Below are positions 1-12,777 of a stretch of 64,000 bases of DNA, one piece after another. The DNA comes from Mycobacterium sp. Z3061 (lineage in GTDB: Bacteria > Actinomycetota > Actinomycetes > Mycobacteriales > Mycobacteriaceae): assembly GCF_031583025.1 (NCBI RefSeq), contig NZ_CP134062.1, positions 6,421,234 through 6,485,233 on the forward strand, read 5' to 3'. The notes beneath the pieces are model-generated. The model worked only from the letters and a program-made list of their open reading frames with translations. It ran no database searches and had not been told where the DNA came from. The position numbers and the translations under genes were made by a program. Every line of letters begins with the position of its first letter. The first letter of the stretch is position 1.

Positions 1-987
1 CCGGCCGCGCCGGTAGCGCCGGCCAAGGTGTTGCCATTCGTCGGCGATTGGGCAGCCGAGTTGTCCCGTGAGTGGTCCGGCGACCCGCCCGACGTCGTGC
101 ACGGCTTCGGATGGCTGGGAGGACTGGCCGCGCAGTTGGCCGCCCGCCGTAATCATCTGACTACCGTGCAAAGTTTTTACGGCCTGGCCGCGACGGATTC
201 CGGTCCGCAGAACGGACAGTCCGCCGATTCCGAACGTGCCCGCCTCGAACCGTTGCTGATCCGCGGCGCTGGCTGGGTGACCGGCGGCAGCAGCGAAGAA
301 CTCAATGTGCTGACGCGGCTGCGCCGCAATCGCGCCCGCACCTCTCTGCTGTCCACCGGGATCGACGTCGAACGCTACGCCTGCACCAATCCCACGTGGG
401 TGGCAAACGATAGCTTTAGAATCGTGCAGGTCGCGCCGAATCTGCAGCCCTGCAATGGATTCGACAAGACCATCCGGGTTCTGCCGCATGTACCGGACAG
501 CGAACTGGTGATCGTGGAGACGTCCACCAACGACGCCCGCAACAAGCGCGAACGGGCCAAACTCAAGCGCATGGCCACTCAACTCGGCGTGAACAATCGC
601 GTCCACTTCGCGGGTTGTGTTGCACCCGAGGATGTTCCGCCGCTGCTCTGGTCCGCCGATGTGGTCGCTTGCACGCCGCGGCTGGCGCCGCGGGCGACCT
701 CGGCATTGCAGGCCATGGCCAGCGGCCGGGTTGTCGTCGGGACGGCGGTGGGGGCCCTGATGGATACCGTGATCGGGAATGTCACCGGCCTGCTGGTGTC
801 TCCGACAAAGCCGCACGAACTGGCCGGCGCGTTGAAAGCCATGCAACAACAGCGCTTTCAGCGCCAGAGCATGGGCTCAGCCGGCCGCTCCCGGGCAATG
901 TCGCGATTCACCTGGGACCGAATCGCCCAAGACGCGCTGAGCATCTATCAACAGGCAAGTCACGTGAAAACCAGCGCCATAGCCTAG
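1..987 (+). CDS. GT4-like glycosyltransferase, 5' truncated by the window
   Basis: The reading frame is open from the first base, so the true start lies upstream and only about the last 328 residues are visible. The visible part looks like a GT-B fold retaining glycosyltransferase (family 4): an N-terminal half with 'DVVHGFGWLGG', a linker, and a Rossmann half with 'RIVQVAPNLQP', 'VHFAGCVAPEDVPPLLWSAD' and a 'TGLLVSP' segment. The usual E-x7-E nucleotide-sugar motif is not intact: the region reads 'APRATSALQAMASG', with Ala and Gln where the two Glu residues are expected. The enzyme may therefore be catalytically altered. Substrate unknown. It ends 12 bp before the AraC gene and probably shares its transcript. 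Confidence 0.75.
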   Translation, partial: PAAPVAPAKVLPFVGDWAAELSREWSGDPPDVVHGFGWLGGLAAQLAARRNHLTTVQSFYGLAATDSGPQNGQSADSERARLEPLLIRGAGWVTGGSSEELNVLTRLRRNRARTSLLSTGIDVERYACTNPTWVANDSFRIVQVAPNLQPCNGFDKTIRVLPHVPDSELVIVETSTNDARNKRERAKLKRMATQLGVNNRVHFAGCVAPEDVPPLLWSADVVACTPRLAPRATSALQAMASGRVVVGTAVGALMDTVIGNVTGLLVSPTKPHELAGALKAMQQQRFQRQSMGSAGRSRAMSRFTWDRIAQDALSIYQQASHVKTSAIA

Positions 988-999
988 GAAACCGAACAT

Positions 1000-1998
1000 A
1001 TGACAACCGCGCCTTACCTACCGGACACCGCCGACCGATCGCAGGAGGGTCGCCCGCCGGAGGCGGTCCGGTACGCGAAGTTCCACACCTCGGACTCCGA
1101 GACGGCCAAACGCTTTTTCGCCGAGGCCTACCAACCGGGCTGGCGGACCACCAGCCTGCCCGGTGGCTCGTCGGTCACCCATCAGCGCTTCGAGTCCGAA
1201 CCCGTCACCATCGACGAGGTGCTGGTCGAAGGCCGCGTGGGCTGCGAAATCCGGGCCACCGACGCTGTGGTGGTCATCCACCCGCGCGCGGGCTCGCTGA
1301 CGCTGGCCGGCGACCCCGGCACCAGGATGGATACCCCGGTGATCGCCGCCGACGGTCTACCATGCGCCATTCAGGCGAACACGGCGCGCTTTCACGTCGT
1401 GCGGATGGATCTGCGGCACTTGACCCAGGTCGCGGCGGAGAAGACCGGACCGCTGCCCCAGAACATCCGCTTCGCCAGCTGCCGCCCCCGCTCGATGTCG
1501 GTCGCCCGCACGTGGACCCAGGCGCTGGACTACGTCATCGCCAGCCTGTCCTACGCCGAAACCGCTCAGCAGCCACTGGTCGTCAACGCGGCAGGCAACC
1601 TGCTCGGCGCCGCGTTGCTGGAGTGTTTCCCCTCCAACATGAACGACGGCCAGGACCTGCTGCGGAACCCTGCGGTGCCACCGACGTTGAAGGGCGCGAT
1701 CTCGTTCATTCACCGCCACGCCGGGGACGGCATCGGGGTCAATGACGTCGCCGACGCACTGCGCATGACGTCCCGCGCGGTTCAGTACCTGTTCCGGCAG
1801 CATCTGGACACCACGCCCACCGAGTATCTGCGCCGCGTGCGCCTGCACCGCGCCCATCAGGAGCTGATCAACAGCGACCGGTCCACCACCACCGTCAGCG
1901 AAGTGGCCCACCGGTGGAGCTTCGCCCACACCGGCCGGTTCGCGGCGCTGTATCGCAAGACCTACGGCCAGAGCCCGCACGCCACGCTTCAGCAGTAA
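1000..1998 (+). CDS. AraC-family transcriptional regulator
   Basis: A 332-residue regulator with a two-helix-turn-helix AraC DNA-binding domain at the C-terminus: first HTH around 'VNDVADALRMTSRAVQYLF' (about residue 245), second around 'VSEVAHRWSFAHTGRFAALY' (about 295). The N-terminal 200 residues resemble the AraC-binding-like sensor domain of mycobacterial AraC proteins. The ATG is preceded by an AGGA ribosome site overlapping the end of the glycosyltransferase gene, so the two are likely cotranscribed. It converges with the PAS-ANTAR gene, whose stop lies 7 bp away. Effector and targets are unknown. Confidence 0.88.
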   Translation: MTTAPYLPDTADRSQEGRPPEAVRYAKFHTSDSETAKRFFAEAYQPGWRTTSLPGGSSVTHQRFESEPVTIDEVLVEGRVGCEIRATDAVVVIHPRAGSLTLAGDPGTRMDTPVIAADGLPCAIQANTARFHVVRMDLRHLTQVAAEKTGPLPQNIRFASCRPRSMSVARTWTQALDYVIASLSYAETAQQPLVVNAAGNLLGAALLECFPSNMNDGQDLLRNPAVPPTLKGAISFIHRHAGDGIGVNDVADALRMTSRAVQYLFRQHLDTTPTEYLRRVRLHRAHQELINSDRSTTTVSEVAHRWSFAHTGRFAALYRKTYGQSPHATLQQ

Positions 1999-2004
1999 CT
2001 GTCG

Positions 2005-2724
2005 CTACAAACCTTCGCGGGTACGCAGTAGCCGGTCGACCCGGTCGGCCGCGTTGTCGTTGACGACGTCCTGAGACGTGATCTCGTCAACGACCCGCTC
2101 GGCGATGTCGCGCAGCTTGACGTTCGACTCCTGCGACAGCTTCACCAGCAGGTCGAACGCCGACTCGGCGTTGACCCCGTACCGCAGCATCAGAATCCCC
2201 ATCGCCTGGTTGATCACCGCGCGGCGCGAATCGACCGCCAACAGCGCCTCACTGAGGTGCTTCTGCAGGTCAGCGTCGAACTGATCGGTGACGTCGATGT
2301 AGAAGCCGCCGATGCCGAGCAGTCGGCCGTCCGGCCCGCCGAACCGGTCGCCCACCACCACCACCAGATGAGTTTCACCCCGGGTATCGACGATGCGATG
2401 CCGGCTGCTGAACGCGGCGCCGTGCCGGCGCACCTGCTCGATCAGCTCTGGAACTGTCGGTTTGTCGTCGGGATGCTTGTGTTTGAGCAACAACTGCGTC
2501 GTCGGCTGCACGCTGCCCGGCTCATAGCCGTGCATCCGTGCCACCTCTTCCGACCATTCCCAACGGTCCTCTCGGGCCAGGTAGCGAAATCTCCCCACCA
2601 GTGGCCACCGGCGACCCCTCTTTCGCCGCGTATCTGCGCACACCAGGGTCATAATATTCCGAACCGCGCGCCACGTCTGAACTTCGGTGCCTGCCGGATT
2701 CGCTTTCCGAACAAAATCCAGCAA
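2005..2724 (-). CDS. PAS-ANTAR putative RNA-binding signalling protein
   Basis: About 239 residues. The N-terminal half is a PAS_3-type sensor fold ('WEWSEEVARMHGYEPGSV' then 'IVDTRGETHLVVVVGDRFGG', ending 'GFYIDVTDQ'). The C-terminus is an ANTAR domain ('SRRAVINQAMGILMLRYGVN...ESNVKLRDIAERVVDEI'). ANTAR domains bind paired-hexaloop RNA and act as antiterminators; in mycobacteria PAS-ANTAR proteins are common but mostly uncharacterised. The start is uncertain: a TTG gives the stated end, and an ATG at 2652 would remove 24 residues without touching the PAS domain. The gene lies 15 bp downstream of the topoisomerase gene on the same strand, so they may be cotranscribed. Confidence 0.85.
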   Translation of the reverse strand: MLDFVRKANPAGTEVQTWRAVRNIMTLVCADTRRKRGRRWPLVGRFRYLAREDRWEWSEEVARMHGYEPGSVQPTTQLLLKHKHPDDKPTVPELIEQVRRHGAAFSSRHRIVDTRGETHLVVVVGDRFGGPDGRLLGIGGFYIDVTDQFDADLQKHLSEALLAVDSRRAVINQAMGILMLRYGVNAESAFDLLVKLSQESNVKLRDIAERVVDEITSQDVVNDNAADRVDRLLRTREGL

Positions 2725-2739
2725 GCGAATGTTCTTGCG

Positions 2740-3798
2740 CTAGGCCGTCTTGGCCAGGGCTGGTGGACGAGTTTTGTTGTTGCCCTTGGCTATTCGCCGG
2801 ATCATCTCCCGGGTGGCCTTTTCCAGCACGCCTTGAGCGACGTCCGGGCGATCAGCTCGCGCGGCGCGCCGCACGGCAGAGGTGATGGTGATGCCCTCCC
2901 GGTAGCCGCTGACCACCCGAGGGTCCACGTAGGAACTGCGAGCCACCGCGGGTGTGTTGCCCAGTTCCTCGGAGACCTCCCGCATGACTGCGGCCTCGAC
3001 CCGCTTGGCGACCCGCTGGGATACCGCCGGGTCCGCGTCCGCGAAGGCTGTGGCGGCCAGCACGGTGCCATGCCAGGTCCGGAGGTCTTTGACGCTGTAG
3101 TCGGAACCAACGAGCTCTTTGAACCGGGCATTGAGGTCGTCGCTGTGCACGTCGACCCATTCGGAGCCGTTGCGCCACATCAAAAATCGCCCGTTGCTGC
3201 AGTCGGTCCTGCGTAACAGCGCGCGCACCGCACGCACCAACTCGGCGTTCTCGATCTCATACTGGCGCTGCACCCCGCTCTTGGCGGGGTAGTCGAAGGC
3301 CACCGAGTCGCGGCGCAGCGTGACATGCTCACAGAGCAGGGTGGCCAGGCCGTAGGATTCGTTCTCCTCGGCGTACTGCTCGCCGCCGGCGCGGAAATAG
3401 CCCAGGTCAAGCAGGTGCAGGCCCAGGGCAAGCACCCGGTCGCGGGTCAGTCCGCGCCCGGCCAGGTCGCGGGCGATGCGCTCGCGCCAGGCCGGCAACT
3501 CCTTGGACAGCTCCAGCACCCGATCGAACTTCTCTTCCGCCCGTTCCTGCTGCCACCGCTGGTGGTAGAGGTACTGGCGGCGGCCCGCCGCGTCCGTGCC
3601 GACGGCCTGGATGTGTCCGTTGGCATAGGGCGCGATCCACACCTTCTTCCACGCCGGCGGAATGACCAGGTCCTTGATGCGCTGCAACGCGTCGGCATCG
3701 GTCAACCGCTCCCCGTCGGGGCCGTAATAGGCGAACCCCTTGCCACGGCGTTTGCGCGTCAGCCCGGGCTTGGCTAAATCACTGCGGCGCAGCCGCAT
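2740..3798 (-). CDS. DNA topoisomerase IB (poxvirus/bacterial type)
   Basis: A 352-residue protein matching the length of bacterial type IB topoisomerases, which relax supercoils by a 3'-phosphotyrosyl nick. The N-terminal part holds 'YYGPDGERLTDADALQRI' and 'VIPPAWKKVWIAPYANGHIQAVG', typical of the family cap domain. The catalytic domain has 'SVKDLRTWHGTVLAA' with the active Arg/His region, and the likely nucleophile Tyr lies in 'SSYVDPRVVSGYREG' near residue 296. H37Rv carries no gene of this type at this locus. It is accessory and scattered among environmental mycobacteria. An ATG start is clear. It probably heads a two-gene unit with the PAS-ANTAR gene. Confidence 0.9.
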   Translation of the reverse strand: MRLRRSDLAKPGLTRKRRGKGFAYYGPDGERLTDADALQRIKDLVIPPAWKKVWIAPYANGHIQAVGTDAAGRRQYLYHQRWQQERAEEKFDRVLELSKELPAWRERIARDLAGRGLTRDRVLALGLHLLDLGYFRAGGEQYAEENESYGLATLLCEHVTLRRDSVAFDYPAKSGVQRQYEIENAELVRAVRALLRRTDCSNGRFLMWRNGSEWVDVHSDDLNARFKELVGSDYSVKDLRTWHGTVLAATAFADADPAVSQRVAKRVEAAVMREVSEELGNTPAVARSSYVDPRVVSGYREGITITSAVRRAARADRPDVAQGVLEKATREMIRRIAKGNNKTRPPALAKTA

Positions 3799-3862
3799 CG
3801 GCGTCCTCCGCTGTCCCCGACGTCACGTCGGCTGAACGGTGGATAACCCGCGCGGCCGGGGC

Positions 3863-4369
3863 TCACACCTGCCGGCCGCGAGTTCGTAGCAGCAACGGCA
3901 CGAACCACCACGAGATCGCGAACAGCGCGAGCGCACACGCGCCGGCGATGAGCCCGGCGGCGGTGCCGGCCACCGAGTCGAAGATCAGCACCGTCACACC
4001 GGTCAGGGCGAGGCCCAGCAGCAAGAGCCCGCCGTAGGCGCAACGGTGCGCCGCCGACACCAGGACCGAGATGCGATGCCGGCGGAACAGCAGGCGGTGC
4101 AAGCCCACCGGTGCGATCAGAAACACCGTCGCGGCCACCGAGCACCCGACCGTCGCCAGGTACACCATGCGCATGTCCCTGCCCAGTAACTCGAAGCGGG
4201 CCTGGAAGGGCAACGTCAGGAGAAAGCCGGTGAGCAGCTGCACGCCGGTCTGCACCACGCGTAGTTCCTGCAGCAGGCTTGCCCAGTTGCGGTCGAGCCG
4301 CTCGAGTTCCGTTTCTCCCCGCTCGCGGTGATCCCACTGCTGGTCCCGTTCCGGATGATCGACATCCAT
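3863..4369 (-). CDS. DUF6328-type four-helix membrane protein
   Basis: A 168-residue membrane protein, from the ATG of 'MDVDHPERDQQWDHRERGE'. A charged, acidic N-terminus (about 40 residues) is followed by four hydrophobic segments ('GVQLLTGFLLTLPFQARF', 'YLATVGCSVAATVFLIAPVG', 'GGLLLLGLALTGVTVLIFDS', 'LIAGACALALFAISWWFVPL'). The pattern 'WxxLLxELRVxQTGVQLLTGFLLxLPF' is characteristic of the actinobacterial DUF6328 family, whose function is unknown. The frame stays open upstream but that extension runs through the neighbouring gene and a strong hairpin, so this internal ATG is preferred. Confidence 0.78.
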   Translation of the reverse strand: MDVDHPERDQQWDHRERGETELERLDRNWASLLQELRVVQTGVQLLTGFLLTLPFQARFELLGRDMRMVYLATVGCSVAATVFLIAPVGLHRLLFRRHRISVLVSAAHRCAYGGLLLLGLALTGVTVLIFDSVAGTAAGLIAGACALALFAISWWFVPLLLRTRGRQV

Positions 4370-4399
4370 GGCGTGATCATTGCACCAGGCAGGTACGGA

Positions 4400-4429
4400 A
4401 CGACCCGCCACTCCGTTGTGGCGGGTCGT
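4400..4429 (-). terminator. hairpin terminator after the hemophore-like gene
   Basis: A perfect 12-bp inverted repeat (ACGACCCGCCAC / GTGGCGGGTCGT) with a 6-nt loop lies 17 bp beyond the stop of the exported heme-binding-like gene and before the start of the downstream membrane protein gene. No run of T follows, as is common for mycobacterial intrinsic terminators. Confidence 0.7.
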
Positions 4430-4446
4430 CGCGTCTGACCAGACAA

Positions 4447-4845
4447 TCAGCCGGCCATGAATTCCTGGTAAGCCGATTCCAGGTTCGGCGGCAGGGCCGA
4501 CACGTTGCACTGACGTTCGGTGTCGCCGATCGGCGCCAGAATGCCCCGCAGGTCGTAGTACTCGTTGGGGTGCGAGGTGAAGTAGCCGCGCAGGTTGGCG
4601 GCGGCTTCTCCGCGCGGCTGCCCGTACGCCGCGGTGACCACCTGGTTGGCACCCGGGTGGCCGGCGAGGTACTGCTCTGCCGCACCCCGCGCCGACATGA
4701 CGGTGGAGTTGACGCCTTGAGGGCTGCAGTCGGGTGCCGCCGCGGCCGACGGCGCGCCGGCGATACCCATGGCGATTCCCCCGAGCAGACAACCGGCGCT
4801 GATACCGGCTACGCGGCGGCGAGCGACGATACTGCTGAATTTCAT
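4447..4845 (-). CDS. exported hemophore-like (heme-binding) protein
   Basis: A 132-residue exported protein. Residues 1-36 form a Sec signal peptide (basic start, hydrophobic 'GISAGCLLGGIAMGIAGA', cleavage near 'SAAAAPDC'). The mature part starts with 'DCSPQGVNSTVMSARGAAEQYLAGHPGANQVVTAA' and has a second Cys in 'ERQCNVSALPPNLES'. This is the layout of the mycobacterial hemophore/Rv0203-related family (all-helical, two Cys, 'YxxxHPxxxxV'). Heme binding is inferred from the family, not visible here. The ATG is preceded by GGAGGA at good spacing. A strong hairpin follows the stop. Confidence 0.8.
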   Translation of the reverse strand: MKFSSIVARRRVAGISAGCLLGGIAMGIAGAPSAAAAPDCSPQGVNSTVMSARGAAEQYLAGHPGANQVVTAAYGQPRGEAAANLRGYFTSHPNEYYDLRGILAPIGDTERQCNVSALPPNLESAYQEFMAG

Positions 4846-5099
4846 GATGTTTGTTCCTCCGAATGAGTGAACCGATCGTTGGGGTCCCGATCCCCTGAAA
4901 TCCAAGGTAGCGAAATCGAAAACGGTTCAGCCGACGCTGTTTCCGGCCACCAAACGAATGCGGCAGTGCGAATGCCGAAATAATGTGACGCAAGAAACTC
5001 TAGGGACAAATTCAGGCGGACAAACCCTTAGAGAACGCAGGAGTTTCTTAAGGGATCGTGACCTGGTTTGTGACGGAACCGTTACCCGCGTGAGCCCTA
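4846..5099. other. intergenic region between rsfB and the hemophore-like gene
   Basis: 254 bp without a gene. Both flanking genes are on the minus strand. It should hold the promoter of the hemophore-like gene. I see AT-rich stretches around 4975-5060 but no confident sigma consensus or regulator box. Confidence 0.4.
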
Positions 5100-5468
5100 T
5101 CAGCGGTTGAGCTTGCCTTCCCGCGCACCGGTGAGGGCGTCGTCCAGCGTCGGATACAAGGGGAATGTCTTGTCCAGGCCGGTCAGGTGAATCGGCCTTC
5201 TGGTCGCCGGTCCGCGCGCCACCACACCGAACTCCGCCGCATCGCCGAGCTTCTCGTAGGTCGCCGCCAGGATCTTCAACCCCACCGAACCGAGGAATTC
5301 CACCGCGGAAAGATCGATGATCAGCGCCGAGGGACCGTCCACCACCACACCGCCGATGGCCTCTTCCAGAGCGGGTGCCGTGACCAGGTCAATTTCGCCG
5401 CCGATGCTGAGTACGACGATTCCGTCATGGTCGGCGACCGAGGCGGTGATCGAATCAGGAGCTGACAA
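5100..5468 (-). CDS. rsfB: anti-sigma factor antagonist RsfB
   Basis: A 122-residue STAS-domain protein closely resembling M. tuberculosis Rv3687c (RsfB), which binds the anti-sigma factor UsfX/RsbW and frees SigF. Seen: 'SIGGEIDLVTAPALEEAIGG' and 'ALIIDLSAVEFLGSVGLKIL', with the candidate phosphoacceptor Ser in the 'EFLGSVGL' loop. The start is a TTG with an AAGGA site 7 nt upstream, giving 'LSAPDSIT' (read as Met) and the family length; longer upstream starts would add an unconserved N-terminus. In H37Rv the next gene is the YqeY protein, but here a divergent stressosome-type operon sits beside it, suggesting a direct functional link to SigF control. Confidence 0.93.
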   Translation of the reverse strand: MSAPDSITASVADHDGIVVLSIGGEIDLVTAPALEEAIGGVVVDGPSALIIDLSAVEFLGSVGLKILAATYEKLGDAAEFGVVARGPATRRPIHLTGLDKTFPLYPTLDDALTGAREGKLNR

Positions 5469-5632
5469 CAGGCGATCCTTCAGTCCGGGCCTCACGAGTG
5501 AACGAGTGTGCTGCAAGCCTAACCTGCCGTGCTTACCGCAAGTAGTGGAAGACCTCAAGAAGTCTCTCGATGTCGCTCAAGCTACTCTCCCCATAGCGGC
5601 CCCTGGAGGGCTCGGAGGGGTTGGAGGGGCAC

Positions 5633-6511
5633 ATGTCAGATTTGCCGTCAGATTCCAGCAGCACCGGTAACAGCGTCTCCTCCGAAGGTTTGCTACCGCA
5701 GCTCGTTCAGCACCTGCGGCGAAATCGGACCGCGCTGCGCGAAGAATGGGCTCGCCGAATCACCGAGGCGGAACTGCTGACCGCGATGACCCCGGAGGAG
5801 ATCTTCTCCGAGGCGACCGCCGTCTACGACAACTACGTGGAGGTGCTCGAGACCGGCAGCGTCGAGGCGCTGCAGGACTACGCGCGCGACCTCTCCGAAC
5901 GCATCATCCCGCGGGGCGTGGAGACCGATGAGGTGCTGGGCATCGTGCTGCTGCTGCGCGACGTGCTGGCGCGCTCGCTGTTCGAGAAGTACCAGGCCGA
6001 ATTCGACATGCTCAACCGGGTGCTGGACGCCTACGAGCCGGCGGCCAACCGCATCGCCAACACCGTGGGCGTCAGCTTCGTACAGGAACGCGAACGCATC
6101 ATCCGCCAGCAGCAGGAGGCCATCCGCGAGCTGTCCACGCCGGTATTGCAGGTCCGCGAACAGCTGCTGATCCTCCCGATCATCGGCGTGCTGGACAGCC
6201 AGCGTGCCCGGCAGGTCACCGAGCAGCTGCTGCGCGCCATCCGCGCCAACCGCGCCAAGGTGGTCGTCATCGATATCACCGGTGTGCCCACCATCGACTC
6301 CACGGTGGCAAACCACCTGGTGCAGACGGTCGACGCGTCGGGACTGATGGGCGCGAGTGTCATCATCACCGGCCTGTCCTCCGAGATCGCGCTGACCCTG
6401 GTGACCATCGGACTGGACCTGTCGAAGATGAACGCGGTAGGCGACCTGCAGGGCGGCATCGAAGAAGCCGAGCGTCTGCTCGGGTACGAAGTCACCCGCA
6501 CCGGCGAGTAA
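5633..6511 (+). CDS. rsbR: RsbR-type stressosome sensor/co-antagonist
   Basis: A 292-residue protein of RsbR architecture: an N-terminal helical sensor domain (residues about 20-160, RsbRD-like rather than globin) and a C-terminal STAS domain starting 'LSTPVLQVREQLLILPIIG'. The STAS core has 'VVIDITGVPTIDSTVANHLV' and 'GLDLSKMNAVGDLQGGIEEA', strongly RsbR-like. The positions of the two phosphothreonines of B. subtilis RsbRA are Ser here (S189 in 'VLDSQR', S223 in 'TIDSTV'). The ATG has GGAGG 5 nt upstream. It is the first gene of an operon with RsbS, RsbT and two phosphatase genes, divergent from rsfB. Confidence 0.9.
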   Translation: MSDLPSDSSSTGNSVSSEGLLPQLVQHLRRNRTALREEWARRITEAELLTAMTPEEIFSEATAVYDNYVEVLETGSVEALQDYARDLSERIIPRGVETDEVLGIVLLLRDVLARSLFEKYQAEFDMLNRVLDAYEPAANRIANTVGVSFVQERERIIRQQQEAIRELSTPVLQVREQLLILPIIGVLDSQRARQVTEQLLRAIRANRAKVVVIDITGVPTIDSTVANHLVQTVDASGLMGASVIITGLSSEIALTLVTIGLDLSKMNAVGDLQGGIEEAERLLGYEVTRTGE

Positions 6512-6526
6512 GTCGGCGATCAGCCC

Positions 6527-6922
6527 ATGCCCGTACCGATCCTGAAGCAGGGCGCGATCCTGATCGCGACCGTCCAGGCCGCTCTCACCGACTCCGACAC
6601 CGAGCGGCTGCGCGAAGACCTGATGGAACGGGTGAGCAGGTTCCGCGCTCAGGGGATCGTCGTCGACGTGACGGCCATCGACGTGATGGACTCGTTCGCG
6701 GCCCGTTCGCTGCGCACGATCGCGCACATGACCCGCTTGCGGGGGGCGACGACGGTGATCGTGGGTCTACAGCCGGAAGTGGCGTTCGCCATGGTGCAAC
6801 TCGGCCTGGCCTTCGACGACATGAGCACCGCGCTGGACCTCGAAGAGGGCATATCGCTGCTCAACAAGCAACTGGGGCTGGGGCTGGGCAAATCGATGAT
6901 CGGGCGCGACGGTGGCGGGTGA
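6527..6922 (+). CDS. rsbS: RsbS-type stressosome antagonist
   Basis: A 131-residue single STAS domain protein. RsbS forms the stressosome core with RsbR and sequesters the kinase RsbT until phosphorylated. The motif 'TAIDVMDSFAARSLRTIAHM' contains the canonical phosphoserine (S56, D-S-F context as in B. subtilis RsbS). 'GLQPEVAFAMVQLGLAFDDM' is the second family signature. The C-terminal 20 residues ('LGLGLGKSMIGRDGGG') are Gly-rich. It begins 15 bp after rsbR and its end overlaps the start of rsbT by 11 bp, which indicates translational coupling. Confidence 0.92.
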   Translation: MPVPILKQGAILIATVQAALTDSDTERLREDLMERVSRFRAQGIVVDVTAIDVMDSFAARSLRTIAHMTRLRGATTVIVGLQPEVAFAMVQLGLAFDDMSTALDLEEGISLLNKQLGLGLGKSMIGRDGGG

Positions 6923-7322
6923 GACCGTGGTCGCGATCAACACCTCCGACGACATCGTCGCCGCCCGCAAAGCCGGTCATCAGCTCGCCCTCGATCTGGG
7001 GTTCTCCCTGACCGACGTCACGATGATCGCCACCGCGATCTCCGAGATCGCCCGTAACATCACCAGCTATGCCGGCCACGGCGAGGTTCGCGTCGCCGTC
7101 GCCGATCGGGAGGGACGCAAGGCGCTGGTGGTACGGGCCGAAGACGAAGGCCCCGGCATCGCCGACATCGACCGCGCGATGGAAGACGGCTACACCACCG
7201 GGCGCGGCCTGGGCATGGGACTGCCGGGAGCGCGGCGGCTGATGGACCGCCTGGTGGTCGAGTCCTCGCTAGGGCGCGGAACGGTCATCGAGATGTGGAA
7301 ATGGGTTCCGGCCCGTGCCTGA
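6912..7322 (+). CDS. rsbT: RsbT-type serine/threonine kinase
   Basis: A 136-residue GHKL (HATPase_c) kinase. RsbT phosphorylates RsbS/RsbR and, once released from the stressosome, activates an RsbU-type phosphatase. Seen: N-box 'TAISEIARNITSYA', G1 box 'VRAEDEGPGIADIDRAMEDG', and G2 'GRGLGMGLPGARRLMDRL'. It uses a GTG start inside the end of rsbS and its own end overlaps the next phosphatase gene by 8 bp. Length and motifs match RsbT rather than RsbW (no extended N-terminus, 'GYTTGRGLGMGLPGA'). Confidence 0.92.
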   Translation: MAGETVVAINTSDDIVAARKAGHQLALDLGFSLTDVTMIATAISEIARNITSYAGHGEVRVAVADREGRKALVVRAEDEGPGIADIDRAMEDGYTTGRGLGMGLPGARRLMDRLVVESSLGRGTVIEMWKWVPARA

Positions 7323-7953
7323 CCGCTCCCGGTCGGCGGGTCGGTTCGGTCCGATCGAGTGGGCGACGGCCAGTCGCCCCCGTCCGGGCGAGCAACTCTG
7401 CGGCGACCAGGCCGTCGCGGTGGACGTCGACGGCGGGGCCGCGTTGTTCGGTGTGCTGGACGGTCTGGGCCACGGACCGGCCGCAGCCGGCGCCGCGCTC
7501 GCGGGCGTCGAGGCACTCGCGAACGCCAGGGAACAGCGGCTGGAAGTTCTGGTCGCGCTCTCCCACCGGGTGCTGACCGGCACCAGGGGAGCCGCGATGT
7601 CTCTGGCCCGAATCGATTTTCAGACCAGCCAGCTGAGCTGGACCGGGATCGGCAACGTCCGGGCGAACCTGGTGGCCAAGAGCGTCGGAGGAGTCCAGAT
7701 CCGGTCCAGCGCCCGGCTGGTCGGCGGCATCGTCGGCTACCGAATCCCGGAAACCAGGCCCGCACAGGTCGTTTCGATACGCACCGGCGATCTCTTGCTG
7801 ATCACCAGCGACGGCATCTCTGACGACTACCTCGACCATCTCGACTTCGCGGCATCCGCCGCCGACATCGCCGAACAGGTCTTGGCCAAGCACGCCAAGG
7901 AAACCGACGACGCCATGGTGCTGGCCGCGCGTCACCGGGGTATCTCGACATGA
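7315..7953 (+). CDS. RsbX-like PP2C phosphatase
   Basis: A 212-residue SpoIIE/PP2C-type phosphatase domain standing alone, as in RsbX, which resets the stressosome by dephosphorylating RsbS/RsbR. Metal-binding motifs are visible: 'GDQAVAVDVDGGAALFGVLDGLGHG' (Asp residues plus DGLGHG) and 'RTGDLLLITSDGISDDYLDHL'. The final 'ETDDAMVLAARH' carries the last metal-binding Asp. The GTG start lies within the end of rsbT and the stop overlaps the next ATG by 4 bp (ATGA). The RsbX assignment rests on size, domain and operon position. Confidence 0.85.
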   Translation: MPDRSRSAGRFGPIEWATASRPRPGEQLCGDQAVAVDVDGGAALFGVLDGLGHGPAAAGAALAGVEALANAREQRLEVLVALSHRVLTGTRGAAMSLARIDFQTSQLSWTGIGNVRANLVAKSVGGVQIRSSARLVGGIVGYRIPETRPAQVVSIRTGDLLLITSDGISDDYLDHLDFAASAADIAEQVLAKHAKETDDAMVLAARHRGIST

Positions 7954-10190
7954 CGTACCCCGGCGAATTCCACGATCAGTACCGGGCCGCGCTGCGGACC
8001 TATCTGGAGACGCCCAACGAGGACGGCCTGGCGGTCGGGCACGAACTCGGGCGCCGGGCACTGCAGGAACAGATCAGCATGCTCGACATCATCGAGAACA
8101 CGTTCTGGCTGCTCGACGAACTCTCCAAGACCGACCCGGTCGACCGCGGCACCGCACTGGAATTCGTGCTGCAGACCCTGGCGCCCTTGGACGTCGCAAC
8201 TCGCGGCTTCATCGACGGCACAAAGCGATACGCGGAGGAACGGGCTCGCGCCGAAGACCTCGCCGACCGCGACAGGTTCCGCACAGCACTGGTGAACTCG
8301 TTGCAGGAGGGCTTCTTCGTCGCCGACGAGGACGGCGGGGTCGTCGAAGTCAACAACGCCTTCGCCGACATTCTCGGATACGGCGCCGACGGACTGCCGT
8401 ATTCGTGGCCCCAGCCGTGGCTGGTGGACCGCGAAGGCACCTACGCCGAGCAGCAACGGGTCCGCGAACTGGGCAGTGCCGAGTACGAGATCCCGGTCCG
8501 TCACCAGGACGGACACCTGGCCTGGGTTGCGGTCAGCATCAACGCGGTTCGCGGGCCCGACGGCGGGCCGGACGTCTACGTCGGAACGATCCGTGACGTC
8601 ACCGCGCGGCGGGCCTTCGCCGCCCGGGAAAGCGCGGTCATGCGCCTGGCCACCTCGGTGAGTGTCGCCAAGAGCGTGGCCGAAGTGCTGGAGATCACCC
8701 TCGAGGAGAGCCGCGCCGCGGTCGACGTGCGCCGGGTGGTCGCGGTGATGTGGCCGTCGGGCGAGGGCGAACCGACTGTCGTGGTGGCGGGCGATCCACC
8801 CGAATCCACTTGGCGCGCAATGAATCCTGAGCTTCGGGAGATTTTCCAGGAAGCCCGCCATCAGCTCCCGCTGACCGCCAAGACGGTGGAGTGGGCGCAG
8901 GCTCCCGGCAAGGCCCGGGGCCTGGTCGCCATGCTGTCGGGCGCCGGCGACGTGGCCCTGTGGCTGGAACTCGCTTCGCCACGCTGGGTCAGCGCCGAGG
9001 ACAAGCTGCTGGTGACAATGCTGATCGGCCACCTGAGCCTGGCCATCCAGCACGTCCGGCAGTTCGAGGCCGCACGCGTGACGTCGCTGACGCTGCAGCG
9101 GGCGATGCTGCCGCCGATGCAGCCGCCCCCAGGCTTCGCGGTGCGGTACGAGCCGGCGGTCCCGCCCCTCGAGATCGGTGGTGACTGGTACGACGTGCTG
9201 CCGATCGACGAAACCCGCATCGGGATCGTCGTCGGCGACTGCGTTGGCCGGGGGTTGCCGGCCGCCGCGATCATGGGCCAGTTGCGCAGTTCCGCGCGGG
9301 CTCTGCTGCTCACCGGGGCCAGACCGGCGGTGCTGCTGGAGCAGCTCGACGCCGCCGCGTCGCTGATTCCGGACGCGTACTGCACGACGGTTTTCCTGGC
9401 GATCATCGACACCGAATCCGGCGTGCTCGAATACAGCAACGCCGGTCACATGCCGGCCGTGCTGGTCCGGACGGTGGCCGGGACGCCCACCGCGACGTTG
9501 CTGCTGACCGATGCCAGTTCGGTGCCACTTGCCGTGCGGCGCAATGAGACTCGGCCGCAGGCAGCCGAGCAGCTGACCCCGGGGTCGATGCTGATGTGGT
9601 TCACCGACGGCCTGGTCGAGCGCCGGCACGAGTCGATCGACGACGGGCTCGCGCGGGTCGCCGACGTGCTGACGGACACCGTCGGACTGCCCATCAGTGC
9701 CGTCGCCGACGCGGTGCTCGACCAACTGGCACCGGCGGGAGGTTACGACGACGACGTCGCGATGGTCGTGTACCGGCACCGGCTGGCCCCGTTGCGCATC
9801 GAGACCAAGGCGACCGCCGAGAACCTGGCGCCTATCCGGCGGGCGCTGACCTCATGGCTCCGGGATGCCGACGTCTCGGAGCTGCTTTCCGCCGACATCG
9901 TCCTGGTGATCAGCGAGGCCTGCACCAACTGCGTCGAGCACGCCTACGAAGGACACGAGCTCGGTACCATGCGGCTCGAGATGGAAGCCGCCGACGGGGA
10001 GATCCGTGCGCGGATCGCCGACTCGGGATCGTGGAAGCCGCCGGCGGCCGACCCGGGTAACGGGGGCCGGGGCCTGCCGCTCATGAGTGTCATGAGCGAG
10101 TCGATGCTCATCGACAACCGCCCCGACGGCACCACCATCGACATCGTCTTTCGTTTGCCTGACCGCGAGCGGGGTAAAACATCGTGGTGA
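7950..10190 (+). CDS. multidomain RsbU-like phosphatase with PAS, GAF, PP2C and RsbW-like kinase domains
   Basis: A 746-residue protein. Residues 1-110 resemble the RsbT-binding N-domain of RsbU ('FHDQYRAALRTYLETPNEDGLAVGHELGRRAL'). Residues about 115-215 are a PAS domain ('NSLQEGFFVADEDGGVVEVN', 'VGTIRDVTARR'). About 225-365 look GAF-like. About 375-610 are a PP2C/SpoIIE phosphatase ('YEPAVPPLEIGGDWYDVLP', 'VVGDCVGRGLPAAAIMGQLR', 'YDDDVAMVVYRH'). About 615-740 are an HATPase_c anti-sigma kinase domain ('VISEACTNCVEHAYEG', 'GGRGLPLMSVM'). It resembles Rv1364c but has an RsbU-type N-terminus and no C-terminal STAS domain. It could both receive RsbT and act on an RsfB-like antagonist. It overlaps its neighbours at both ends. 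Confidence 0.88.
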   Translation: MTYPGEFHDQYRAALRTYLETPNEDGLAVGHELGRRALQEQISMLDIIENTFWLLDELSKTDPVDRGTALEFVLQTLAPLDVATRGFIDGTKRYAEERARAEDLADRDRFRTALVNSLQEGFFVADEDGGVVEVNNAFADILGYGADGLPYSWPQPWLVDREGTYAEQQRVRELGSAEYEIPVRHQDGHLAWVAVSINAVRGPDGGPDVYVGTIRDVTARRAFAARESAVMRLATSVSVAKSVAEVLEITLEESRAAVDVRRVVAVMWPSGEGEPTVVVAGDPPESTWRAMNPELREIFQEARHQLPLTAKTVEWAQAPGKARGLVAMLSGAGDVALWLELASPRWVSAEDKLLVTMLIGHLSLAIQHVRQFEAARVTSLTLQRAMLPPMQPPPGFAVRYEPAVPPLEIGGDWYDVLPIDETRIGIVVGDCVGRGLPAAAIMGQLRSSARALLLTGARPAVLLEQLDAAASLIPDAYCTTVFLAIIDTESGVLEYSNAGHMPAVLVRTVAGTPTATLLLTDASSVPLAVRRNETRPQAAEQLTPGSMLMWFTDGLVERRHESIDDGLARVADVLTDTVGLPISAVADAVLDQLAPAGGYDDDVAMVVYRHRLAPLRIETKATAENLAPIRRALTSWLRDADVSELLSADIVLVISEACTNCVEHAYEGHELGTMRLEMEAADGEIRARIADSGSWKPPAADPGNGGRGLPLMSVMSESMLIDNRPDGTTIDIVFRLPDRERGKTSW

Positions 10191-11203
10191 CTCACACGTC
10201 GATCACCGTTGAACCGGCCCTGCCGGCGGCACACGGTCCCCTGTCGACGGCTGTACGCCGCATTCTGACCACTCCGGCCTCGCGTGAACCGTCGGGCCGG
10301 ATCGGAGCGTCGGTGCGCGACTCCGATCCCTACGGCCTGGACCTGCAGCTCGCGTTGTACATGTGCTACGAACTCCACTACCGCGGCTTTGCGTCGGTGG
10401 ATCCCGGTTGGGAGTGGAATCCGGCCCTGTTGGGGCTGCGTGCCGAACTGGAGCGCGTCTTCCTCGCCGGCGTACGCCGCGACGTGGGACCCATCGATGC
10501 CGGCCACTCAGCGGCCGCGGAAATGGAAGCGCTGACTATTGAACCGCGCGATGGCTCCGGCCCGTCGTGGCACCTGCGGGACAGCGGGACCTGGGAGCAG
10601 ATGCGGGAGTACTTCGTGCACCGGTCCCTTTACCACCTCAAAGAGGCGGACCCGCACGCATTCGCCATCCCCCGCCTACTCGGGACCGCCAAGGCGGCGT
10701 TCGTCGCGATCGAGTACGACGAGTACGGCGCCGGGCGGGGTCCGCACATGCACCAGCAGCTGTTCGCCGACCTGCTGGAGGCGGCGGGCCTGGATTCGAC
10801 CTATCTGGCTTATCTGGACGCGGTGCCGGCGGAGGCGCTGGCGTCGGTAAACCTGATGTCGCTGTTCGGCCTGCACCGGCGGCTGCGTGGCGCCGCGGTG
10901 GGGCACTTCGCGTCGACCGAGATCACCTCGCCGCCAGGATCACGGCGGATGGTCGACGCACTGCGTCGGATGCAGGCGCCGGAGGCGTGCGTGGCTTTCT
11001 ACCGCGAACACGTGGAAGCGGACGCGGTACACGAGCACATTGTGCGAATCGACGTGGTGGGCGATCTGCTGGCCCGTGAACCTCACCTGGACAGCGACGT
11101 GGTGTTCGGGATTCGCGCGCACGCGGCGGTCGAAGACCGGCTGGCCGATGTGCTCATGACGTCCTGGCAGCAGGGAAGGTCGTCGCTGCGGCGGCCCCTG
11201 TAG
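10184..11203 (+). CDS. haem-oxygenase-like iron-containing redox enzyme
   Basis: A 339-residue protein of the 'iron-containing redox enzyme' family (haem-oxygenase-like diiron oxidase fold). Likely metal ligands lie in 'AAFVAIEYDEYGAGRGPHMH' and in 'FYREHVEADAVHEHI' (Glu, Asp, His); 'LRGAAVGHFASTEITSP' is another family block. Members of this fold include N-oxygenases, desaturase/lyases and decarboxylases, so the reaction cannot be predicted. The GTG start overlaps the end of the phosphatase-kinase gene by 7 bp, so it belongs to the stressosome operon. It converges on a CDGSH protein and a methyltransferase, which often accompany this family in actinobacteria. Confidence 0.82.
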   Translation: MVTHTSITVEPALPAAHGPLSTAVRRILTTPASREPSGRIGASVRDSDPYGLDLQLALYMCYELHYRGFASVDPGWEWNPALLGLRAELERVFLAGVRRDVGPIDAGHSAAAEMEALTIEPRDGSGPSWHLRDSGTWEQMREYFVHRSLYHLKEADPHAFAIPRLLGTAKAAFVAIEYDEYGAGRGPHMHQQLFADLLEAAGLDSTYLAYLDAVPAEALASVNLMSLFGLHRRLRGAAVGHFASTEITSPPGSRRMVDALRRMQAPEACVAFYREHVEADAVHEHIVRIDVVGDLLAREPHLDSDVVFGIRAHAAVEDRLADVLMTSWQQGRSSLRRPL

Positions 11204-11209
11204 GCGGTA

Positions 11210-11425
11210 TCAGCTTTCGGCGTTGAGTAAGCGCTCGACTTTGGGGCCACGACATCTGCGGTGACTGGTGTCGCACAGCGGGTAGTCCTGGCTGCGCCGA
11301 CAGGTGCACACGGCCACCATGAAACGATCGGATTCCACCACGTCCCCGCCGGGTGTCTCGATCCGCGCCGGGCCGGAGACCAGCACCGGCCCGTTCGGTA
11401 TCACCTGTACGCGAGTCGTGCTCAC
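11210..11425 (-). CDS. CDGSH-type 2Fe-2S protein
   Basis: A 71-residue protein with one CDGSH iron-sulfur motif: 'CTCRRSQDYPLCDTSH' (C-x-C-x2-S-x3-P-x-C-D-x2-H), giving the three Cys and one His ligands of a mitoNEET-like 2Fe-2S cluster. The GTG start overlaps the methyltransferase stop (GTGA), so the two are translationally coupled. Longer upstream starts lie inside the methyltransferase and are not needed. Probably a small electron carrier; its partner might be the adjacent diiron enzyme (inference). Confidence 0.88.
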   Translation of the reverse strand: MSTTRVQVIPNGPVLVSGPARIETPGGDVVESDRFMVAVCTCRRSQDYPLCDTSHRRCRGPKVERLLNAES

Positions 11426-12114
11426 GGTTTGTCTGCCCGGATCACCACGATCTGCTCCCTCCGGCAACCGCGCCCGATGCGACCGGTTTCCTCCAGCCAT
11501 TGTGCTCGCGCCGTCAAGACCGGACCGAATGGGATCAGCTGTGATGCAACGACATCGGCCTTCAGTCCGGTGTCCCGCAGGGTTTGCAACGTCGGATCGA
11601 CACCGGCGAGAGCCGAGTGCACCAACAGCAGGGACCCGCCGTCAGCCAGCAACTTCGACGCCGAACCGCACAACGGGTCCAGCACCAGCCGGCCGTCCGG
11701 CCCGGCGTTGTATGCGCGGGACGGGCCCGCGATCGACGCGATCGCGCTTGTGTCATCGAGAGGCGGGGTCGGGACGTAAGGCGGATTCGACACGACGACG
11801 TCGTAGGGTCCGTGATCCAGGGCCTTAACCCAAGAACCCTGCCGCACATCGACATTCACACCGGCACCGGCGGCGTTGCCGCGCGAGTAGCTGACGGCGG
11901 ATGGGCAGATGTCATATGCGGTCACACTGGCACAGCCCATTTCTGCCGCCGCGATCGCGACGAATCCTGATCCGGTGCACAGGTCGAGGACCCGTCGCCG
12001 GGGGATCAGACCTGTTCGTCGCATCGTGTCGACCAACAGGTAGGAGTCGTATTGGGGCTGGTAAACCCTTTCGGCGACCAGTGTTTCGAGTGGCGCGGGG
12101 TATGTGGTCGTCAC
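11422..12114 (-). CDS. HemK2/MTQ2-like SAM-dependent methyltransferase
   Basis: A 230-residue class I methyltransferase with motif I 'VLDLCTGSGFVAIAAAEMG' and the amide/amine-methylating 'VVSNPPYVPTPP' motif, as in release-factor glutamine methyltransferases. It lacks the N-terminal helical domain of PrmC/HemK and has 'YQPQYDSYLL' near the start, typical of the HemK2 group. Substrate unknown; it need not be a release factor. The GTG start has AAAGG 6 nt upstream. It is the first gene of a two-gene unit with the CDGSH protein. Confidence 0.85.
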   Translation of the reverse strand: MTTTYPAPLETLVAERVYQPQYDSYLLVDTMRRTGLIPRRRVLDLCTGSGFVAIAAAEMGCASVTAYDICPSAVSYSRGNAAGAGVNVDVRQGSWVKALDHGPYDVVVSNPPYVPTPPLDDTSAIASIAGPSRAYNAGPDGRLVLDPLCGSASKLLADGGSLLLVHSALAGVDPTLQTLRDTGLKADVVASQLIPFGPVLTARAQWLEETGRIGRGCRREQIVVIRADKP

Positions 12115-12219
12115 GGCAAGCCTTTCTCGACCCGTCGGAGGATTACGCCGTGGCGATCACGGCTCGGCGTTTCTATGCCCTCAAAAGAAGGCGTTGAAAC
12201 CGATTTCAGGGGTTTGTCG

Positions 12220-12777
12220 TTAAATGGACGAACCGGAAGACGCCTGAGCGAATTGCTGCAGAATCGTTGAACAAAAGGCGGATAAATCTTTTGGTGAGCG
12301 ACTGGTGATCAGGTTGCCGTCAACCACCACTTCCTCGTCGACCACATTCGCCCCCGCATTGCGCAGGTCGGTGCGGATGCTCGGATACGACGTCAGTGTG
12401 CGGCCGGTCACCACGCCCGCTTCCACCAGCGTCCATGGGCCATGACATATTGCGGCAACGGGTTTTCCGGACTCGACGAAGTCGCGCACGAACGAGACCG
12501 CGGACTCGTCCAGTCGCAACTTGTCCGGGTTGACGGTGCCACCGGGCAGCACCAGTCCGTCGTATTCCGCCGGTGAAGAATCCGACACCGTGCGGTCGAC
12601 TTTGATGGTTCCGGCGGGTTCGAGATCGTGATTGCGGGCTTGGATTTCACCGTCTTTCAGCGACACGATGTCTATCTGCGCGCCGGCCTGTTGCAGTGCG
12701 TCGCGCGGTTGCTCGAGTTCGATTTTCTCTACCCCGTCGGCCGCCAGGATGGCAATTCTTTTGCCGTCCAAAGTCAT
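12220..12777 (-). CDS. DJ-1/PfpI-family protein (type 1 glutamine amidotransferase-like)
   Basis: A 185-residue DJ-1/PfpI protein with the nucleophile elbow 'KPVAAICHGPWTLVEAGVV' (reactive Cys followed by His) and 'YDGLVLPGGTVNPDKLRLD'. Members act as protein/nucleic-acid deglycases, glyoxalases or proteases; the specific activity here is unknown. The ATG has AAGGAG at 8 nt. It lies 13 bp downstream of the zinc dehydrogenase gene and is the last gene of the SRPBCC-dehydrogenase-DJ-1 operon, which has a SigF-type promoter, so a general-stress role is likely. Confidence 0.9.
   Translation of the reverse strand: MTLDGKRIAILAADGVEKIELEQPRDALQQAGAQIDIVSLKDGEIQARNHDLEPAGTIKVDRTVSDSSPAEYDGLVLPGGTVNPDKLRLDESAVSFVRDFVESGKPVAAICHGPWTLVEAGVVTGRTLTSYPSIRTDLRNAGANVVDEEVVVDGNLITSRSPKDLSAFCSTILQQFAQASSGSSI

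What the first reader, a model, noticed from the sequence alone, without database searches (positions are those of the whole stretch)
5100..10190. Complete stressosome-type module next to the SigF antagonist gene rsfB
rsfB is divergent from five overlapping genes encoding RsbR, RsbS, RsbT, an RsbX-like phosphatase and an RsbU/PAS/GAF/PP2C/HATPase protein. Seen directly: STAS, GHKL and PP2C motifs, and 4-11 bp overlaps from rsbS onward. Known: RsbR-RsbS-RsbT stressosomes control SigB in Bacillus, and RsfB activates SigF in M. tuberculosis, which lacks this operon at this locus. Inference: here a stressosome feeds SigF through RsfB. Stressosome genes are reported in some environmental mycobacteria, so it is the wiring to rsfB that is new to test.
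Basis: partly seen in the sequence, partly recalled or inferred. Interest (0 to 1): 0.85.

Follow-up and report, generated by a model that had tools for sequence, protein, structure and literature searches.

The report
Mycobacterial stressosome operon beside rsfB
This stretch of an environmental mycobacterium carries a complete, already described kind of stress-sensing protein machine next to the gene for the switch protein RsfB, and comparison with relatives suggests that RsfB and one kinase-phosphatase protein are the lasting core while the sensing machine has been lost more than once.

Summary
RsbR, RsbS, RsbT, an RsbX-type phosphatase and RsbUW (RsbU_N-PAS-GAF-PP2C-kinase) lie divergent from an antagonist gene that is RsfB (91 of 122 residues identical to PDB 8ih8, taken as M. 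tuberculosis RsfB). The module is not new: a stressosome of this make-up is published for M. marinum and most slow growers (PMC8115616). Linkage to RsfB is strong as genomics: in 65 of 65 RsbR-bearing genomes among 198 searched, RsfB is divergent and adjacent. Relatives show graded losses at this place: RsbR/S/X gone but RsbT, RsbUW and RsfB kept (at least 4 separate changes on the tree); RsbT gone too; RsbU_N cut off; RsfB alone. RsfB stays beside RsbUW in 17 of 17 decayed loci that keep RsbUW, and RsbU_N is missing only where RsbT is missing. A tree splits RsfB-like antagonists in two: 8ih8 falls in the stressosome-locus clade, while a locus built like M. smegmatis rsfB-rsbW2-rsfSR carries the other kind. 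Most likely RsbT activates RsbUW, which dephosphorylates RsfB Ser61, freeing SigF from UsfX.

The parts
5100..5468 (-). rsfB: STAS anti-sigma-factor antagonist, 122 aa from TTG 5468 (longest frame reaches 5558); phospho-acceptor Ser61 in FLGSVGL
   Evidence: Pfam STAS E 9e-21; 91/122 identical to PDB 8ih8 RsfB; serine 111/111 in the mycobacterial loci read; start from footprint
5469..5632 (.). shared divergent region of rsfB and rsbR with conserved blocks (tgCaAgCcTA at 5512, gCgaActGcgaGaagAa at 5531, GcTAgtCTC at 5581); no SigF-type promoter match
   Evidence: alignment of 94 loci; SigF motif (recalled) in 0 of 94
5633..6511 (+). rsbR: globin-fold N-terminal sensor domain plus STAS domain; phospho-sites Ser227 (Thr171/175 equivalent) and Thr259 (Thr205/209 equivalent), numbered from the frame start 5621
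6527..6922 (+). rsbS: STAS-only core protein, phospho-acceptor Ser56
   Evidence: Listeria RsbS E 4e-26; serine 94/94
6912..7322 (+). rsbT: GHKL serine kinase / RsbU activator (SEIARN, DEGPGI, GRGLGMGLPGARRLMD)
7315..7953 (+). rsbX: small PP2C phosphatase
   Evidence: PDB 3zt9 E 6e-20 and RsbX 3w40 E 1e-9; PP2C aspartates 98/98
7950..10190 (+). rsbUW: RsbU_N (7977-8198), PAS (8292-8615), GAF fold (about 8607-9173), SpoIIE/PP2C phosphatase (9210-9779), HATPase_c_2 kinase (9807-10148)
10184..11203 (+). Haem_oxygenas_2 (iron-containing redox enzyme) gene overlapping rsbUW by 7 bp; a neighbour kept in slow growers, not counted as part of the core
   Evidence: found in 75 of 80 named loci, not found in the 8 more distant loci L149-L156

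Best explanation
A stressosome-controlled partner switch with RsfB as its output. RsbR (globin-fold sensor + STAS) and RsbS form the core and hold RsbT. On stress RsbT phosphorylates the core and is released; RsbX resets it. Free RsbT binds the RsbU_N domain of RsbUW and turns on its PP2C domain, which removes the phosphate from RsfB Ser61. Unphosphorylated RsfB binds UsfX and frees SigF. The C-terminal kinase domain of RsbUW rephosphorylates RsfB at rest, because UsfX lacks the kinase asparagine motif. PAS and GAF give RsbUW a second input. Shown here: genes, domains, intact catalytic and phospho-sites, 65/65 linkage, and loss of RsbU_N only where RsbT is lost. Inferred: every interaction and reaction.
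For: Domain and structure matches for every part. RsfB: 91/122 identical to 8ih8, same clade 100/99; 8ih8 is titled a UsfX-RsfB complex (its organism is not printed, I take the names as those of M. tuberculosis). RsfB divergent and adjacent in 65 of 65 RsbR genomes and in 20 of 20 loci fetched by RsbUW. In 4 of 4 loci of another genus of the family the STAS gene lies just downstream of rsbUW. RsbU_N profile scores: complete loci 96-166 bits (94), RsbT-only 123-142 (6), no RsbT 45-97 (5) or none (5), one apparently recent loss 138. Key PP2C aspartates and kinase Glu/Asn/His/Asp/Gly of RsbUW intact in 115 of 115 loci. Own genome has usfX-sigF, with EACTRLI in UsfX where RsbUW has EACTNCV. M. marinum interactions are published (PMC8115616, two of seven parts and passages); RsbT acting through RsbU_N in B. 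subtilis (PMC12143880, passages).
Against: No biochemistry for this locus. The genome has 14 STAS hits including RsfB itself, a second STAS-kinase pair (363 kb; STAS 48% identical) and a second SigF-like sigma factor (1.74 Mb) that could share or replace the target. RsbU_N scores of loci without RsbT overlap the low end of loci with it (97 against 96; the other-genus loci with RsbT score 96-107) and one RsbT-free locus scores 138. No SigF-type promoter in the intergenic region, 0 of 94. In at least three, probably four, lineages RsbT persists without RsbR or RsbS, so RsbT need not be stressosome-gated. Pfam RsbRD_N on RsbR is below its cut-off (21.1 of 24.3 bits).
Confidence: 0.74

Rival explanations
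1. The stressosome is real but its main output is another antagonist or sigma factor (the second STAS-kinase pair at 363 kb, another STAS protein, or the second SigF-like sigma factor at 1.74 Mb); RsfB is only a genomic neighbour.
For: 14 STAS matches including RsfB itself, 22 HATPase_c_2 matches and two SigBFG matches above the cut-off in the same genome.
Against: Adjacency of RsfB in 65 of 65 genomes; its survival beside RsbUW in 17 of 17 decayed loci that keep RsbUW; linkage kept on the other side of the operon in another genus. The 363-kb STAS has its own kinase gene next to it.
Confidence: 0.14
2. RsbUW and RsfB form a self-contained PAS/GAF-sensing kinase-phosphatase switch; the linked stressosome tunes it little or has a separate output.
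For: RsbUW-RsfB persists without RsbT and without RsbU_N in five loci, and without RsbT but with a mostly weaker RsbU_N in five more; PAS and GAF folds are present.
Against: RsbU_N is present in 104 of 104 loci that have RsbT (94 complete, 6 RsbT-only, 4 of another genus) and is missing only in loci without RsbT; rsbS-T-X-UW overlap one another.
Confidence: 0.08
3. The operon serves an iron/haem response through the overlapping Haem_oxygenas_2 gene rather than a general stress response.
For: The Haem_oxygenas_2 gene overlaps rsbUW by 7 bp and is found in 75 of 80 named loci; a haemophore-type gene lies behind rsfB in the window.
Against: The Haem_oxygenas_2 gene is not found in the 8 more distant loci L149-L156; a haemophore-type match is found in only 19 of 80 named loci, not always beside rsfB.
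Confidence: 0.03

Closest known systems
Mycobacterium marinum stressosome (rsbV, rsbR MMAR_5182, rsbS MMAR_5183, rsbT, rsbX, rsbUW; PMC8115616)
   Same: Same gene set with a fused RsbUW and proposed control of SigF; reported in most slow growers and missing in the M. tuberculosis complex.
   Different: That paper says rsbV and never RsfB or Rv3687c (0 occurrences each). That its rsbV is this rsfB is my inference, and the paper's sentence can be read as rsbV too being absent from the M. tuberculosis complex, which would speak against it. The M. marinum locus was not read here.
Bacillus/Listeria RsbRST-RsbX-RsbU stressosome controlling SigB
   Same: RsbR, RsbS, RsbX and RsbU_N match by sequence or fold, and RsbT has the GHKL kinase motifs.
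   Different: RsbUW adds PAS, GAF and a C-terminal kinase domain; the antagonist gene is divergent; the first RsbR phospho-site is Ser instead of Thr. The sigB operon layout is recalled.
M. smegmatis RsfB-RsbW2-RsfSR (PMC7693655, PMC10950880)
   Same: STAS antagonist of the SigF pathway with a dedicated kinase and PP2C phosphatase; the anti-sigma factor lacks kinase activity.
   Different: Input is a two-component system. A locus of that make-up (L269) carries an antagonist of another clade. M. smegmatis itself was not read.
Rv1364c-type PAS-PP2C-kinase-STAS fusion (PDB 3ke6)
   Same: Best solved match to the PP2C-kinase part of RsbUW, E 7e-40.
   Different: RsbUW has RsbU_N and GAF and no fused STAS; its antagonist is a separate gene.

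Membership tests
RsbRST stressosome | RsbR: N-terminal sensor domain plus C-terminal STAS with two phospho-acceptor sites | tested here: met
RsbRST stressosome | RsbS: STAS-only protein with phospho-acceptor Ser in DSF | tested here: met
   E 4e-26 to Listeria RsbS; Ser 94/94
RsbRST stressosome | RsbT: GHKL kinase with intact N, G1 and G2 boxes | tested here: met
RsbRST stressosome | Output protein with an RsbT-binding RsbU_N domain | tested here: met
   PF08673 E 2.7e-15 in residues 10-83; binding itself not tested
RsbRST stressosome | RsbX-type reset phosphatase (common, not universal) | tested here: met
   3zt9 E 6e-20; RsbX 3w40 E 1e-9
RsbRST stressosome | 1-2 MDa RsbR-RsbS particle binding RsbT | not testable with these tools
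   no experiment; M. marinum interactions and co-localised foci are in PMC8115616
RsfB (M. tuberculosis type) | Orthology to the RsfB of PDB 8ih8 | tested here: met
   91/122 identity against 43% for the next closest STAS of the genome; same clade 100/99. The M. tuberculosis genome locus was not read
RsfB (M. tuberculosis type) | Phospho-acceptor serine at position 61 | tested here: met
   Ser61 counted from TTG 5468; serine 111/111; Ser61 named for M. tuberculosis in PMC10950880
RsfB (M. tuberculosis type) | Binds UsfX and activates SigF | not testable with these tools
   inferred from 8ih8, titled a UsfX-RsfB complex
RsfB-RsbW2-RsfSR (M. smegmatis type) | rsbW2-type kinase gene directly downstream of the antagonist, histidine kinase and REC-PP2C nearby | tested here: not met
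   behind rsfB lies a haemophore-type gene; the rsbW2-like pair lies at 363 kb

The most novel reading that the evidence does not exclude
RsfB plus RsbUW is the true core switch of the mycobacterial SigF pathway, and the stressosome is a detachable input. In several lineages RsbR, RsbS and RsbX vanished while RsbT stayed under purifying selection, giving a 'lockless' RsbT-RsbUW-RsfB switch in which RsbT must be gated by something other than a stressosome. M. tuberculosis RsfB is the last survivor of such a locus, and it is a different paralogue from the M. smegmatis RsfB on which the kinase and phosphatase work was done.
Probability: 0.5. Interest if true: 0.68.

Novelty: new member of a known kind. 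Interest (0 to 1): 0.5.

Why it matters
What feeds stress signals to SigF in slow-growing mycobacteria is open; the kinase of M. tuberculosis RsfB was reported unknown (PMC7693655, passage) and no RsbW2 counterpart was identified there (PMC10950880, passage). Placing that RsfB in the stressosome-locus clade says which partners it has in its relatives, warns against carrying over M. smegmatis results, and points to natural knock-outs (no RsbR/S; no RsbT; no RsbU_N) that make each step of the pathway testable. Loci that keep RsbT without a stressosome would test what RsbT does on its own.

Tried and rejected
SigF autoregulation through the divergent promoter: GTTT-N-GGGTA type motifs (recalled) toward rsbR or rsfB in 0 of 94 intergenic regions, no more than in shuffles; rejected. 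Defence-system reading: no PADLOC match for the five operon proteins. Haem-binding RsbR: globin fold found, but the only histidine of the sensor domain from ATG 5633 on is His31, in the first helix; unlikely, not tested. Position numbers as proof that M. smegmatis RsfB is another paralogue: rejected as weak. Pettersson 2013, the first M. marinum report, is not held (one search was a wrongly guessed DOI); known only from the reference list of PMC8115616. M. tuberculosis, M. marinum and M. smegmatis do not appear among the 80 named loci kept of 96, so those loci were not read.

Rows dropped or picked: of 80 named loci, 74 went into class A; L079, L090 and L108 (short contigs), L102 and L123 were left out and L119 put apart. 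Class A has 94 rows from 93 genomes (M. genavense twice, L080 and L162). In 4 of its rows the best rsbR piece is short (L080, L162, L161, L093) and in 2 the best rsbS piece (L080, L162), so 'complete' means gene order, not that every gene is whole. Classes B-D were picked because RsbUW came without RsbR or with a short N-terminus, so their numbers are not frequencies; the match list was cut, so more may exist. The Pfam scan of class D covered only the aligned part of L158 and L223 and says nothing about RsbU_N; its absence rests.
Full report
What is there. The window is from a 6.79-Mb single-contig genome; the nearest named locus is Mycobacterium gordonae CTRI 14-8773 (13 window proteins 97-100% identical). 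[quoted passage not shown] Solved-structure matches agree part by part: RsbR with Listeria and Vibrio RsbR, RsbS with RsbS entries, RsbT with SpoIIAB-type kinases, RsbX with 3zt9 and RsbX 3w40, RsbUW with Rv1364c. The GAF domain, invisible to Pfam, appears in the model of residues 220-408 (mean pLDDT 86.8; best Foldseek matches contain GAF domains).

The neighbour is RsfB. It shares 91 of 122 residues with PDB 8ih8 RsfB; the next closest STAS of this genome shares 43% over 104. 8ih8 is titled a UsfX-RsfB complex; its organism is not printed, and I take these names as those of M. tuberculosis. In a 62-row tree 8ih8 lies inside the stressosome-locus antagonists (39 rows, 100/99), and antagonists paired with an RsbW2-like kinase lie apart. 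One of the latter, in G144 (L269), is followed by the kinase and by a convergent set of a REC-like protein, a histidine kinase and a REC-PP2C protein (REC-PP2C is a Pfam result, the REC-like and CHASE3-type kinase labels are mine). That is the order described for M. smegmatis rsfB-rsbW2-rsfSR (PMC7693655 and PMC10950880, passages), except that the last M. smegmatis gene is said to have a DNA-binding domain and the 146-aa frame here seems too short for one. So the name RsfB probably covers two paralogues. M. smegmatis itself was not read; residue numbering (Ser61 against Ser63) is weak support.

Linkage. Of 198 genomes of the genus, 65 carry this RsbR (E at most 1e-30; in G045 and G076 it is split). 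In all 65 an RsfB-type gene is divergent and adjacent: 57 by coordinates (aligned ends 63-413 bp apart) and 8 by reading the loci. Of 20 loci fetched by RsbUW, 20 have it too. In four loci of another genus of the family a STAS gene lies just downstream of rsbUW instead; in two of them tblastn scores it slightly closer to the genome's second STAS, but the tree puts all four with the stressosome-locus clade.

Natural losses. At the divergent locus I read: A, R-S-T-X-UW; B, rsfB | rsbT-rsbUW with no RsbR, RsbS or RsbX (6 loci); C, rsfB | rsbUW with RsbU_N but no RsbT (5); D, rsfB | rsbUW lacking the first 88 or so residues, that is RsbU_N (5; only 99-179 bp lie between the aligned ends); E, M. 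sp. E1214 (L119), rsbR-S-T-X gone and rsbUW open; F, rsfB without rsbUW in L159 and in M. simiae JAL-560 (L102), where rsfB and the Haem_oxygenas_2 start are about 60 bp apart near a contig end. No RsbS-like match (E at most 1e-8) was found in the 17 B, C, D and L159 genomes, and RsbT (E at most 1e-15) only in the 6 of class B; both positive controls were found, and there the RsbS query also hit the RsbR STAS. L218 keeps a short RsbR-like frame upstream of rsbT, so that class B case is loss. On the RsbUW tree class B needs at least four changes (starred branches), C two and D one. Three of the B cases (L215, L217, L218) sit beside class A loci; the fourth (L216, L228, L233) groups with class D at 83/75, so those two may share one loss of RsbR/S/X.

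What the losses say. RsbU_N is present in 104 of 104 loci with RsbT and missing only in loci without it: A 96-166 bits (94 rows), B 123-142 (6), other-genus 96-107 (4); without RsbT, C 45-97 (5), D none (5), E 138 (1). The ranges touch, and C keeps a recognisable RsbU_N (Pfam also finds it in L220, L230, L215 and L119), so the pattern is a trend with a clear end point (D), not a clean split. The PP2C aspartates of GGD, GDC, TDG and DDD and the kinase Glu, Asn, His, Asp and Gly motifs of RsbUW are intact in 115 of 115 rows. RsbT in class B keeps its ATP-site motifs, but the N-box Arg, present in 94/94 class A, 4/4 other-genus and 15/15 other-family loci, is changed in 3 of 6 (His, Cys, Leu). 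dN/dS of RsbT is 0.12-0.18 between class B pairs, 0.06-0.09 between class B and class A neighbours and 0.04-0.14 between class A pairs (10 pairs): clearly constrained, not clearly relaxed. The reading is that RsbT works through RsbU_N, that RsfB-RsbUW is the constant output, and that the stressosome is replaceable.

Mechanism. In B. subtilis RsbT binds RsbU_N and the following linker and dimerises the phosphatase (PMC12143880, passages). Here PAS and GAF lie between RsbU_N and PP2C, so how the signal passes is open. UsfX in this genome reads EACTRLI where RsbUW has EACTNCV, and in M. smegmatis only RsbW2, not RsbW1, phosphorylates RsfB (PMC7693655, passage). A separate kinase is therefore likely, and the RsbUW kinase domain is the nearest candidate.

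Known or new. PMC8115616 (first two of seven parts and passages; [quoted passage not shown] tuberculosis complex and others, interactions and co-localised foci in M. marinum, and a proposed route to SigF. The window is a new member of that kind. That its rsbV equals RsfB is my inference; its wording can be read against it. I found no paper that equates the stressosome-linked antagonist with M. tuberculosis RsfB, or that reports RsbT-RsbUW-RsfB loci without RsbR/RsbS, in searches of an open-licence library that lacks most subscription papers.

Noticed in passing
window 10184-12777: Haem_oxygenas_2 gene overlapping rsbUW by 7 bp, followed by a CDGSH-like gene (11210-11500, -), a methyltransferase-like gene (11422-12114, -) and a PfpI-like gene (12220-12777, -); matches to these in 75, 69, 69 and 68 of 80 named loci. 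The last three labels are mine.
   Followed up: partly
L199-L211, L213, L214: In other actinobacterial families the order is rsbT-rsbR-rsbS, and in 9 of 15 loci an RsbU_N stretch without PP2C in the same frame follows rsbS (Pfam confirmed it in the two scanned); the RsbR Thr171-equivalent is Glu in 11 of 15, Ala in 3, His in 1, a possible built-in phosphomimic.
   Followed up: partly
G000:C1:1743765-1744430 (L125): A second SigF-like sigma factor above the SigBFG cut-off (272 bits); no antagonist gene recognised by eye in the 3.7-kb locus.
   Followed up: no
L124:2149-2535 (-): A small STAS-like gene convergent with, and overlapping, the end of sigF (label mine).
   Followed up: no
G000:C1:362842-363645 (L160, L235): Second STAS-kinase pair (rsfB/rsbW2-like) in the same genome; a STAS match lies beside the kinase in 30 of 30 loci examined. 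No two-component genes were recognised by eye in the 10 kb around it here.
   Followed up: partly
L080/L162 (M. genavense), L161 (G045), L093, L123 (M. lepraemurium): Broken or partial stressosome genes: rsbR and rsbS split in M. genavense, rsbR split in G045, rsbR only partly matched in L093, only traces of rsfB and rsbR in M. lepraemurium. Described only.
   Followed up: no
G536 (L196, L197) and G110 (L163, L164): Second RsbR copies away from the operon: a lone one (residues 10-296) in G536 and a partial one in G110.
   Followed up: no
window 5469-5632: Blocks conserved in 94 rsfB-rsbR intergenic regions (tgCaAgCcTA at 5512, GcTAgtCTC at 5581) that do not match a SigF promoter; regulator unknown.
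   Followed up: partly
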